A DNA stretch of 64,000 bases from Polyporus tsugae (lineage: Eukaryota > Basidiomycota > Agaricomycetes > Polyporales > Polyporaceae), in contig JAHRBS010000006.1 of the NCBI GenBank assembly GCA_024305745.1, forward strand, positions 1,986,501 through 2,050,500, given 5' to 3'. Below are positions 41,130 through 51,943 of the stretch, in pieces. How positions within the stretch are numbered: position 1 is the stretch's first letter; the number at the start of each line of letters is the position of its first letter. The translations under genes and the position numbers were made by a program. Under the pieces are notes generated by a model. That model saw only the letters and a program-made list of their open reading frames with translations, ran no database searches and was not told the origin of the DNA.

Positions 41130-42461
41130 ATGAGTGGCTCCAACTGTGTCATTCGCGAGGTTAGTACGACGGCGCGGCCGCCTTCAAGCGACGACAAGTT
41201 ATTGATCTGCAAGCTCTGCCCAGGTCTCAAAGGACTTGTGGACATTCTCATGGTGGGATATCGGGTGCTGCAGGACGAACAAGTGCTCATCGTCACTGCT
41301 CTCTAGTCCCTTCTCGGTGATGAACATTTTCCCCGTCGGAGGACGGTCGACAGCCATCAAACTACGCAATGGAGGCGTTTGGGTCCTCGCCTCCACGCCG
41401 CTCATTGACCCCACCAAGGCGAAGCTTCGCGAGATGGGCACAGTGAAGTACGTACATCTCTGTTTGGGCATTGTGTACGAGATGGCGTCTGACGAGTGCG
41501 ACCTGACAGATGGATCGTCGGTGCAGACATGTACCATCATATGTTCCTCGGTATGGCAATCTCCTCGTTCAGAACGTATCCAGATATGCCACAATTATCC
41601 ATACTGATTCCTGCGACGTCACAAGCCGACTTCAAGAAGGAGTATCCAGATGCCAAAGTGATCGCCGTGGACGCAGCGAAGACGAAGGAAGCGGTAGCAG
41701 GAGCTGGTCTCGAGTTCGATGGAGGTATGATCATATATTGTAGAATGTGATCTGCCAGACTCATGCGTCAGTACTTCAGCATGGGGGGCTGACCCGCCGA
41801 ACACGAACTACGGCTTTGAAGATGATGTAAGTCTCAAACTATGCTGTGGCGGTCGTCTACTGAAAAGCTGAGTCGCACCGGCAGATAGAGCACTGGTGAG
41901 CCTCGCCCCCAACATTCTCGCGCTACCGTGTTGCGGCCAGCCAATGCCGCACAGTTGCTTTCCAGGATTCCTGAACAAGGACGTCGCCTTCCTGCACAAG
42001 GAATCCAAAACCCTCATCCAGGCTGACCTCCTCTTCAACTTCCCGGCCCATGAGCAGGTCTGCATCTCAGTTGGTGCGCTCTTAATCAATGCTCACTGAC
42101 GCTCTGCAGTACTCCCTGGCGGGTGGAACTTCGTTCTTTTCGTGGAGTCGCTGGAACCCCTTCAGCTGGACGAACAGGAAGACGGTTTGGTGGCTTGGCC
42201 AGGACAAAGAGTCAGTACGCGATGTGTGCGGTCCACCAACGTCTTTCATATCCATTCACATTGCTCCAGGGCAATGAGGCGCGATGCGAAGACGGTCGCA
42301 CAATGGGACTTCGATCGCATCATTCCTTGTCATGGGGTATGTATTCTTCTGGCTGCTGAACACTTTCATCGCTGAGCACATATATATTGTATGCGCAGGA
42401 TGTGATTGAGACGGGGGGCAAGAACGCATGGACAGAGGCATATCGCGACTTCCTAGATTAA
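41130..42461 (+). CDS. DUF4336 family protein (metallo-hydrolase-like fold)
   Basis: The model starts MSGSNCVIRE at 41130 and runs through about nine short exons: DLWTFSCPFSVMNIFPVGGRSTAIKL, GGVWVLASTPLIDPTKAKLREMG, WIVGADMYHHMFL, DFKKEYPDAKVIAVDAA, WGADPPNTNYGFEDD, FLNKDVAFLHKESKTLIQADLLFNFPAHEQ, YSLAGGTSFFSWSRWNPFSW, KTVAQWDFDRIIPCHGDVIETGGK, ending YRDFLD and TAA at 42459-42461. The GAD..HH, LIQADLLFN and IIPCHGD blocks are those of fungal DUF4336 proteins, which look like metallo-beta-lactamase-fold hydrolases; no reaction is known to me. All splice joints keep the frame. A decayed second copy of its last exons lies at 45935-46110. Confidence 0.82.
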
Positions 42462-42499
42462 GATGTAAGCATCGCAGAAATAGATTGTCTGACATTTGT

Positions 42500-42635
42500 C
42501 TGACCGAGCTATTGGTATTCAGTATTCTAGCTTTCGTGGGTACCGGTCTAGGAACAAATGAAACATCGGGGCGTCGTCGTGTTGTGTCACGATGTCCGGC
42601 AATTTACAAGAGCATATATGGAGTCCTTCTTTCTG
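42500..42635. repeat. Duplicated 3' flank, copy 1
   Basis: The flank just after the intact DUF4336 gene matches 46131-46262, in the same orientation, at roughly three bases in four by eye. Shared landmarks are CCGAG(C/T)TATTGGT, CATCGTCGTGT or its variant, ATGTCCG and CCTTCTTTC. Confidence 0.75.
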
Positions 42636-42668
42636 TAACATAAGTATTTCACACTCGTGCACTCAACT

Positions 42669-42713
42669 CTAGTTCTCGACGAGGTTGCTCGCCCGCGTAT
42701 TAGGGTTGCCATC
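42669..42713 (-). pseudogene. Relic of a GDP-mannose 4,6-dehydratase gene (C-terminal scrap)
   Basis: Fifteen codons on the minus strand read DGNPNTRASNLVEN and a stop. The intact GMD ends with HGNPAKAEK, then more residues, then SSNLIENQN. The scrap therefore keeps the GNP block and the terminal SNL(I/V)EN with the middle deleted. It lies between the intact DUF4336 and wax synthase genes, where a second GMD would be expected under the block-duplication model. Confidence 0.65.
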
Positions 42714-42803
42714 CCGATTATAGCGACACCCTCATCAAGTTGAGTCTAGATTTATTCATCAGCCTCGGTTCACTCGAGCCTACTGGTCTCAAACATGAAA
42801 CAC

Positions 42804-49308: not shown

Positions 49309-49310
49309 TA

Positions 49311-49732
49311 CTGGAAGTGGTAAAATTGGCAGTCTGAATACTGAAATCATGATCGCGAGACTCAACGAGACACATATGCATTCAAGTGGAGTGCAGCAAA
49401 GCCAGATCCTGCCATTGGCAGACCTCGAAGATGCGCGCATATGACTCTTCGCGAGCGGCGCCGCATGAGAGCGATTGTCGTGTGGCTTCAGCCTGTACTT
49501 AGACCACATGTAGTTTCGCAAGACGGTGAATCGACTCCGCAAAGATGCGCGCGTGTGTATGTATTCACTCCTGAACGAAGGCGAGGAGCTCGCGAGTGTA
49601 TGAGCGACAAGCGCCCATTGTCGGTATTAGAGGATCTCGGTTGGCGCATCCACCTTCTTCCGCATCCACCTCCCGCCCTTCCTCCATCGATAACCTTTTC
49701 CACTCTCACAACTACCTAAGGCACATCGAACG
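49311..49732. promoter_or_regulatory. Promoter side of GDP-L-fucose synthase
   Basis: About 420 bases between the TIR element and the start codon, with CT-rich sequence (about 49650-49700) just before the start. No other gene. Confidence 0.4.
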
Positions 49733-51271
49733 ATGTCTGTACGGGTTCTCGTTACTGGAGGTACTGGTCTCGTCGGCCAGGGCATCAAGTACGTTATCGA
49801 GACCGAGCCTGCCAACTCGCACTTCGGCAAGCGCGATGGAGAGGAGTGGTTCTTTATTGGCTCTTCGGAGGCGGACCTGAGGTGAGTGCTCTTGGTGAAG
49901 TGCTAGATGCGATTGCAGTAAACTGGCGTGCAGGAATCAGGAGCAGACGAGGAAGCTGTTTGAGAAGTACAAGCCGACTCATGTAATCCATCTTGCCGCG
50001 CTTGGTGCGCTTTGCAGTCGTATTGCGCCTTGTTCCACTCTGAATTATGGGTTTTCCTCTGCATTCAAGTTGGCGGCCTGTTCGCAAACATGGCCAGGAA
50101 GGTACATCTCGTCGCGTTCGCATTCATACATGCCAACCCCGCTTGCTAATCAAATTCGGCGTGCAAAGCTCGACTTCCTGCGGGAAAACATTCTCATCAA
50201 TGATAACGTCCTGCACACCTCGCACGAGTTTCAAGTGAAGAAGGTCATATCCTGTCTATCAACCTGTGTTTATCCCGACAAGGTGGAATATCCCCTCGAC
50301 GAGACAAAGATCCACCTCGGTCTCCCCCATGAATCCAACTTCGGCTATGCGCACGCGAAGCGTCTCGTTGACATCCAAAACCGGTGCGCTCTGCTTTCTA
50401 CTCTCCCACCGTGAATACAAAATGGCTGACGCGCATGGGCTTACAGCGCATATAAGGATCAGTATGGCAACAACTTCACCTCCGCAATCCCCACAAACGT
50501 GTTTGGCCCTCATGACAACTTGTGAGCACCCTCAGACAATCCGCGCTTTGTGCGGCATGCGCGACCGCTCGACGTCATTGACTTTCATTTCTAGCGATAT
50601 GGAGAGCGCACACGTCCTTCCTGCGCTCATCCACAGGTGTTATCTTTCCAAAAGTGCGTTTCCCCCTTCAACTTCCGCATCCAGGCTCGCTAACAGGCCG
50701 GTCTCGCGCGCCTCCTTCTCTTCCAATCCATGTGGTATCCCCTGTCTTCCACGCCAATGCGCGCTACCCCCCAATCGCCTCATCTGATACTCCTTACAAC
50801 CATATGCAGAGAACAACAACCCCTTCGTCGTCTGGGGCTCAGGCAAGCCGCTTCGGCAGTTCATCTACTCGCGCGACCTTGCAAAGCTCTTCGTCTGGAT
50901 GCTGCGCAACTACGACTCGGTCGAGCCGCTCATACTGTCCGTGGGTGAGGACGAGGAGGTGTCGATCAAGCAGGCCGCGGACGCTGTCGTCGAGGCTGTC
51001 GGCTTTACGGGCGAGTACCGCTTCGACACGACGAAGGCCGACGGCCAGTTCCGCAAGCCGGCGTCGAACAAGAAGCTACTCGCGCTCGTGAAGGACACCG
51101 GCTTCAAGTTCACGCCGTATGAACAAGGTCAGTCCTCTGCGCGCGCGCGTTTATTCCGTGAAGGGTGAGATGGACGTTGACTGGGTTTGTTGTGCTTGTG
51201 TAGCGCTGGAGGAGACGGTGCAGTGGTTCTTGCGGAACTACGACAACGCGCGGACGGGGAAGCCGCAATAG
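49733..51271 (+). CDS. GDP-L-fucose synthase (4-keto-6-deoxymannose epimerase/reductase)
   Basis: Epimerises and reduces the GMD product to GDP-L-fucose in the cytosol. It starts MSVRVLVTGGTGLVGQGIKY at 49733, with the GxxGxxG cofactor motif at once. Then come DLR, PTHVIHLAALVGGLFANMARK, FLRENILINDNVLHTSHE, KKVISCLSTCVYPDK (catalytic Ser and Cys), GLPHESNFGYAHAKRLVDIQ (YxxxK), GNNFTSAIPTNVFGPHDNF, VVWGSGKPLRQFIYSRDLAKLFVWML, and a C-terminal helical part ending NARTGKPQ with TAG at 51269-51271. About seven short introns join in frame. Adjacent and divergent to GMD, it forms a two-gene GDP-fucose cluster. Confidence 0.93.
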
Positions 51272-51339
51272 GTTCAAGGATATCGTCGTAGAAATCTGTA
51301 ACCCCTTGTAGGGTTTCATACAACAGTGCAATGAAGCAC

Positions 51340-51852
51340 TCACAGAAACTCGGGTGCAACCCTTTGCATGATCGAGAAGAGTCGGAGGTTTGCCTCGGGG
51401 GTCCCAACCATAAATATAATATACCAGAGGACGAGACGTAACGAGCACGAGAACCACATGAACAGCCAGGTGTACCCGACGATCCGCACCCAGCGCCGCG
51501 GTGAACCCTCCTTCCCCTTCAGTTTGGCCACGGACTGGGCCCCAAGGCGACGCGCCACGGCGATGAGGACGTCTCCGAAGGTGATGGCGACGGCGTTGGC
51601 GAGGAAGAAGAGGATCGACAGGCCGAAGGGCGCGCCCGATGGCGAGCTCGCCGAAGCTATGGGACAGGCCGGAGAGGAACAACACGGTGTAGAGCAGCGA
51701 GTACGAGGACTGGTTTATGCCTTTGTCGAATCTGGCGACCGTCTTGCCGCAGGTAGAAACGTTCTACGATGTGAGGGTGTTGTGCGGCATCGTAAACAAG
51801 GCCTTTAGCTCCCGTTTTCGATCAGGTCGGGCCCCATCTCCGGATCCCGATG
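51340..51852 (-). pseudogene. Broken copy of the wax-synthase-like gene
   Basis: The last exon is well kept (RRLGAQSVAK, RRWVRIVGYTWLFMWFS, SIMQRVAPEFL and stop at 51340), and the sequence over the stop codon matches that of the intact gene. One extra base near 51633-51640 shifts the frame after HSFGELAIG. Upstream, about 51809-51852 matches only a piece of exon 1 (GPDLI area, 43449-43495), so most of the gene is deleted. It lies directly after GDP-L-fucose synthase. Confidence 0.8.
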
Positions 51853-51943
51853 CCACTCATAAGTATTAGCGCATACTGGCGAGCTTAAAAAGCGAAACGT
51901 CGCATACACTTGTAGGAGACCCTTCCGATTCTACTAAGTTACT

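What the first reader, a model, noticed from the sequence alone, without database searches (positions are those of the whole stretch)
41130..51861. Tandem duplication of a four-gene block followed by loss of opposite genes in the two copies
Seen: intact DUF4336 and wax synthase genes on the left have a GMD scrap between them (42669-42713), while intact GMD and GDP-fucose synthase on the right are flanked by a DUF4336 scrap (45935-46110) and a broken wax synthase (51340-51852). Order and strand agree. Inference: an ancestral block DUF4336 > < GMD, GDP-fucose synthase > < wax synthase was doubled. Copy 1 then lost the GDP-fucose pair and copy 2 lost the other two genes, so one full set survives split over two places.
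Basis: partly seen in the sequence, partly recalled or inferred. Interest (0 to 1): 0.82.

Follow-up and report, generated by a model that had tools for sequence, protein, structure and literature searches.

The report
Duplicated gene block with leftover scraps
In a Ganoderma-like bracket fungus, an old local duplication followed by deletions most likely split four neighbouring genes into two pairs and left small broken pieces behind; this is a well-preserved example of a known way in which gene order changes.

Summary
The window is from a Ganoderma-like polypore. The four genes (DUF4336 = D, GMD = G, GDP-fucose synthase = F, MBOAT wax synthase = W) have intact spliced frames. The co-linear scraps are real: the D tail, D-G spacer and about the last nine GMD codons (42277-42692) match 45935-46343, and the 3' half of W1 matches a relic w2 (51331-51848).
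The GMD scrap is about 30 bp (42663-42692), not 45; the rest lies in W1's 3' flank, where the C15 paralog also shows similarity. No trace was found of F in the left copy, of D exons 1-9 between the copies, or of W's 5' half within 22 kb right of w2. The scraps end abruptly and w2 shows no significant codon-position bias, so d2 and w2 may have been truncated at birth. Best reading: a segment running from inside D to inside W was duplicated in tandem, then a deletion took G-F from the left copy, moving G-F out from between D and W. Loss of opposite members from two complete blocks is not shown. The event looks old: W1-w2 third-position divergence equals that of W1 from C15. No fungal relative's gene order could be read directly, and independent W duplications remain a real rival.

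The parts
41130..42461 (+). D1: intact DUF4336 (PF14234) gene, 11 exons, 243 aa
   Evidence: spliced frame with GT-AG introns; Pfam DUF4336 52.9 bits; 87% identical to a G. leucocontextum protein
42462..42662 (.). D-GMD spacer, left copy; homologous to 46105-46313
   Evidence: 72-77% identity, K 0.29-0.37
42663..42692 (-). g1: scrap of about the last nine codons and stop of GMD, left copy
   Evidence: 25 of 30 bases match 46314-46343; E 0.003; 0 of 300 shuffles
42693..42717 (.). junction between GMD scrap and W1 stop codon; W-side 3' flank
   Evidence: C15 paralog similarity reaches about 42693, where the test stretch was cut
42718..44180 (-). W1: intact MBOAT_2 wax synthase gene, 4 exons; terminal exon 42718-42745
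   Evidence: spliced frame; PF13813 on its ORF pieces; 90% identical to P0121 of G. leucocontextum
44181..45934 (.). 1.75 kb between the copies; no detectable D or D-upstream remains
   Evidence: local alignment scores at chance for 44230-45935
45935..46104 (+). d2: relic of the last two exons of DUF4336
   Evidence: aligned to D1 exons 10-11, 68% and 75% identity
46105..46313 (.). D-GMD spacer, right copy
46314..48443 (-). G2: intact GDP-mannose 4,6-dehydratase, 6 exons, 377 aa, with one 753-bp intron (47502-48254)
   Evidence: GDP_Man_Dehyd 410.6 bits on the main ORF; one DNA match in the genome for 46300-47520
49733..51271 (+). F2: intact GDP-fucose synthase, 8 exons, 328 aa
   Evidence: Epimerase 173 bits
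51331..51848 (-). w2: wax synthase relic; truncated at both ends, internal deletion, intron bases kept

Best explanation
In an ancestor of this Ganoderma-like fungus the order was D > < G F > < W. A segment running at least from inside D (about exon 10) through G and F to inside W (exon 1) was duplicated in tandem, giving D G F W followed by a second copy with truncated ends (d2 G F w2). In the left copy one deletion, or several, then removed GMD except about its last nine codons, all of F, and the sequence up to about 25 bp past the W1 stop. The surviving G-F pair is the right-hand one. The net effect moved G-F out from between D and W without either gene pair being lost, and it gave W1 the old GMD 3' end as its new downstream sequence. 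Shown: the homologies, their order and orientation, the abrupt ends, and lack of significant codon-position bias in w2. Inferred: that it was one duplication, its exact ends, that all of G and F stood in the left copy, the number of deletions, and the ancestral order.
For: Co-linear matches in one order and orientation. The GMD tail sits in the left copy exactly where the D-side homology continues. Divergence of the D-G spacer and the W stretch is broadly similar. w2 looks like a DNA copy and not a retrocopy: 12 of 13 bases at the start of W's terminal intron are kept, and intron 2 plus the start of exon 3 aligns better than all but 1 of 2000 shuffles. Abrupt scrap ends: w2 matches at 89% over 38 bp and then stops; no W 5' part found in 22 kb to the right. 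No D exons 1-9 between the copies. w2 has no significant codon-position bias, unlike the functional W1/C15 pair. D-W and G-W linkage hints in relatives. T. sanguinea W proteins, on a contig of the same length as its GMD contig, belong to the sister clade of the Ganoderma W genes.
Against: Only about 30 bp of GMD and nothing detectable of F survives in the left copy, so the duplicate may never have held full G and F. The F-w2 spacer (51272-51330) shares nothing with the C15 or W1 3' flank (781 and 839 of 1000 shuffles reach the scores), so an extra deletion is needed there. W divergence is lower than spacer divergence in most stretches (0.196 and 0.252 against 0.29 and 0.374; one W stretch gives 0.29); constraint on W1 could explain this, but so could separate events. 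W1-w2 third-position divergence (40/138) is the same as W1-C15 (40/140), so age does not single out w2 as a tandem sister of W1. In the protein topology test w2 as sister of W1 alone is the least favoured of the seven tested (AU 0.062), and 'w2 with the C15 clade' is not rejected (AU 0.158; IQ-TREE warned of too few replicates). Intron 2 of w2 alone is not significant (255 of 2000 shuffles), and the middle stretch with stricter scoring was at chance (102 of 300).
Confidence: 0.5

Rival explanations
1. One reading: four complete genes were duplicated in tandem, and opposite members were lost later from the two copies by decay and deletion.
For: Same order and orientation evidence as the best explanation. 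Later deletions could have removed D2 exons 1-9 and the 5' part of W2.
Against: No trace of the missing parts of D2 or W2, although the neighbouring relic DNA is still 68-89% alike. w2 shows no significant sign of a period under coding constraint.
Confidence: 0.22
2. Separate events: a small duplication of the D-GMD boundary, plus independent dispersed duplications of the W gene, one landing beside D and another beside F.
For: W copies do disperse in this lineage: a full paralog on C15, two further MBOAT_2 matches on C7, and P0122/P0123 in G. leucocontextum. The w2 match ends 13 bases into its terminal intron, with unrelated sequence beyond. W1-w2 and W1-C15 are equally diverged at third positions. 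W is less diverged than the D-G spacer in most stretches measured.
Against: Requires two or more events that happen to give the same order and orientation. GMD-W and D-W linkage hints recur in other Polyporaceae.
Confidence: 0.22
3. The ancestral pair was D > < W; it was duplicated, and G-F was inserted later between d2 and w2.
For: D and W carry consecutive locus tags in G. sinense (GSI_09270/09271) and G. adspersum (V8D89_014965/014964).
Against: The left copy carries GMD C-terminal codons, and that C-terminus is native to GMD: Dichomitus squalens ends in the same residues (ASSNLIENQN) and several other polypores in close variants.
Confidence: 0.04
4. Assembly artefact, for example two haplotypes joined head to tail.
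For: None beyond the general possibility in dikaryotic fungi.
Against: The copies differ by 17-32%, GMD has one match in the assembly, and the relics are truncated at different places.
Confidence: 0.02

Closest known systems
Tandem duplication-random loss (TDRL) model of gene-order change
   Same: Tandem copies followed by loss of different members, with relics marking the lost places, reorder genes without inversion.
   Different: Of the 15 papers listed (listing only), 14 by title concern mitochondrial genomes, several of them fungal. This case is nuclear, looks old, and may involve ends truncated at birth.
Alternate retention after duplication (Cenp-C in the Drosophila montium group, PMC12724597; abstract read)
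   Different: There a single gene at several distinct syntenic loci; here a linked pair displaced locally, with scraps of both borders kept.
Gene transposition in yeast (PMC2675101; passages read)
   Same: Movement of a gene relative to the ancestral order.
   Different: The authors call transpositions relatively rare and hard to count in yeast; here relics document the steps.

Membership tests
Tandem duplication-random loss | two co-linear copies in direct orientation | tested here: met
Tandem duplication-random loss | each copy lost members that the other kept | tested here: inconclusive
   left copy lost G-F but only ~30 bp of G remains as witness; right D and W may have been truncated at birth
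Tandem duplication-random loss | duplicated stretches diverged by the same amount (one event) | tested here: inconclusive
   spacer K 0.29 and 0.374, d2 exons 0.31 and 0.41, W 0.196, 0.252 and 0.29 by stretch, GMD tail 0.196 over 30 bases; constraint differs between them
Tandem duplication-random loss | unduplicated order in an outgroup | not testable with these tools
   no fungal genome other than the window's own could be read; only contig-length and locus-tag hints
Retrocopy (processed pseudogene) for w2 | introns absent | tested here: not met
   12 of 13 terminal-intron bases kept; intron 2 plus exon 3 start 1 of 2000 shuffles, but intron 2 alone 255 of 2000
GDP-L-fucose pathway genes (GMD, GDP-fucose synthase) | complete spliced frames with family domains | tested here: met
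   GMD 94% to a G. lucidum GMD

The most novel reading that the evidence does not exclude
A nuclear, genus-old duplication-deletion moved a whole two-gene pathway module (GMD plus GDP-fucose synthase) out from between two unrelated genes, and in doing so gave the wax synthase the old GMD 3' end as its new 3' end; the relics would let the order of steps be read from species to species across Ganoderma.
Probability: 0.3. Interest if true: 0.5.

Novelty: new member of a known kind. Interest (0 to 1): 0.36.

Why it matters
Local gene-order change without inversion is often explained by duplication and loss, but in my paper searches (listings) I met no nuclear case with datable scraps of both borders; this is not a claim that none is in print. 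Here the steps could be tested across Ganoderma species. The case also warns that 'reciprocal loss' can be read into a duplication whose end genes may have been dead at birth.

Tried and rejected
Rejected: (a) the 'DGNP' likeness of 42693-42713 to another part of GMD, since the C15 paralog shows this stretch to be W-side sequence. (b) w2 as a retrocopy. (c) Extra D or W remains: none found in 44230-45935 (D) or to the right as far as 10 kb beyond the window (W); the best W 5' match there was 19 bp with E 0.016. W1 upstream against 51849-64000 gave one stretch that 1 of 50 shuffles reached, not followed. (d) A second D-G-F-W block elsewhere: GMD DNA has one match. About 18-20 kb on either side of the C15 W paralog gave only W by blastn; the other tblastx rows are short fragments at one shared E-value that I take as noise. 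The two C16 stretches of 10 kb with DUF4336 paralogs gave no G, F or W match by blastn at E 0.01. (e) A premature stop in W1: the apparent stops lie in introns. (f) Placing w2 in the W tree: unresolved.

Literature: locus tags GSI_09268-09273 occur in no held paper. Four papers hold the Ganoderma/GMD/fucose-synthase terms, all plant studies by their titles (listing only). Nuclear duplication-loss searches were read as listings, except PMC12724597 (abstract) and PMC2675101 (passages).

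Full report
Setting. The window lies at C6:1986501-2050500 of a 43.24-Mb assembly in 18 contigs. The closest proteins are mostly from Ganoderma: GMD 94% to a G. lucidum entry and also 94% to Dichomitus squalens, W1 90% and D1 87% to G. leucocontextum.

The four genes. D1 (41130-42461 +) splices into 243 aa over 11 exons. GMD (46314-48443 -) splices into 377 aa, with one unusually long intron of 753 bp. GDP-fucose synthase (49733-51271 +) splices into 328 aa; my script places one of its intron borders one base off the GT-AG rule, but the frame is unaffected. 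W1 (42718-44180 -) splices into four exons ending in LNLMRVSL. That ending has counterparts in P0122 (LNLMKASL) and P0126 (LSLMKASL). See, and Pfam.

The duplicated stretches. Self-comparison gives the co-linear matches listed in the observation check. The D-side homology runs through D exons 10-11 and the spacer into about the last nine codons of GMD: 25 of 30 bases, 0 of 300 shuffles, E 0.003 in an 84-kb search. That GMD C-terminus is native and not borrowed from the spacer, because Dichomitus squalens ends in the same ten residues and several other polypores in variants. So D and GMD were convergent neighbours before the duplication.

Where the left copy was cut. The C15 paralog of W (C15:2178232-2179694) is alike W1 not only in the gene but on through the terminal exon towards base 42693 (score 54 against at most 35 in 1000 single-base shuffles; the stretch was cut at 42693 by me, and the next 313 bases are at chance, 95 of 200). 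In the left copy the GMD tail therefore abuts W-side sequence, and the W1 stop lies 25 bp away. This is what a deletion from near the GMD stop, through GMD and F, to just past W1 would leave. The W1 transcript would then run into the former GMD 3' end (inferred). The w2 side does not share this flank (781 and 839 of 1000 shuffles): its match with W1 ends 13 bases into the terminal intron (12 of 13 bases alike), so w2 lacks the terminal exon.

What is missing. No D exons 1-9 and no copy of D1 upstream sequence was found in 44230-45935 (284 of 300 and 232 of 300 shuffles reach the scores). W 5' sequence right of w2 was near chance out to 10 kb past the window (best E 0.016 for 19 bp). F remains in the left copy were not significant (25 of 300). 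The best alignment of the D side begins near the start of exon 10, and w2 ends sharply after a 38-bp stretch of 89% identity. The middle of w2 is poorly preserved: with strict scoring it was at chance (102 of 300), with milder scoring intron 2 alone was not significant (255 of 2000), the exon 3 start was weak (66 of 2000), and both together were reached by 1 of 2000 shuffles.

Tempo. K is 0.29 (core) and 0.374 (whole) for the D-G spacer, 0.31 and 0.41 for the two d2 exons, 0.196 for the 30-base GMD tail, and 0.196, 0.252 and 0.29 for three W stretches. The ranges touch but do not coincide; W1 is under constraint, so a lower W value is expected, but this is not proof of one event. W1/w2 differences by codon position in exon 3 are 34/137, 26/137 and 40/138. 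The functional pair W1/C15 has 24/140, 13/140 and 40/140. A shorter stretch gave 25/120, 23/119 and 30/120 for W1/w2. So w2 shows no significant position bias and probably lost constraint early. The equal third-position counts make the W1-w2 split about as old as W1-C15. The protein tree puts w2 near the base of the W1 group, but the seven tested placements had AU values from 0.062 (sister of W1 alone) to 0.907 (sister of W1+P0121+P0122) with 2000 replicates, too few for a reliable AU test by the program's own warning. The d2 residues GGKKA agree with G. sinense, G. adspersum and D. squalens, whereas D1 and G. leucocontextum have GGKNA; one residue is only a hint that the split predates those two species.

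Relatives. D and W have consecutive locus tags in G. sinense and G. adspersum, and D, W (90%) and a second W (73%) share one contig length in G. leucocontextum. All 4 are among the 7 Polyporaceae; 0 of the other 11 do. I counted these by eye. Equal length stands in for same contig, and the D. squalens and L. tigrinus rows may mix strains. The six genera of the 7 are placed in Polyporaceae; that the other 11 species are not is recalled. The W proteins of Lenzites, Cerioporus, Daedaleopsis and Dichomitus are a different subfamily from the Ganoderma ones; the W proteins of T. sanguinea fall in the sister clade. This supports an old D-G-W neighbourhood but does not show the order.

Conclusion. The duplicated stretches and scraps are real and look old. 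'Opposite genes lost from two complete copies' goes beyond the evidence: the right-hand D and W may have been born truncated, and the left copy's G-F loss rests on a 30-bp tail plus parsimony. Independent W duplications remain the strongest rival outside the duplicated-block reading.

Noticed in passing
48685-49312: Perfect 29-bp inverted repeat (containing TACAGTAGACACCCTCTTAACGCATAC) bounding about 630 bp between GMD and GDP-fucose synthase; looks like a small non-autonomous DNA transposon (recalled likeness, no family search).
   Followed up: partly
27337-27364 and 28014-27987: Another perfect 28-bp inverted repeat of similar spacing, possibly a second such element.
   Followed up: no
51944-53461: 505-aa ORF with an RNase H domain, probably part of a retroelement lying just right of the w2 break.
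   Followed up: partly
47502-48254: 753-bp intron in GMD, where the other introns of the four genes are 48-156 bp; its origin could not be searched.
   Followed up: no
G. leucocontextum P0121/P0122 (no window coordinates): P0122 is 92% identical to P0121 over 135 columns near the C-terminus but only 73% to W1 over the whole protein; uneven divergence suggests gene conversion between linked W genes.
   Followed up: no
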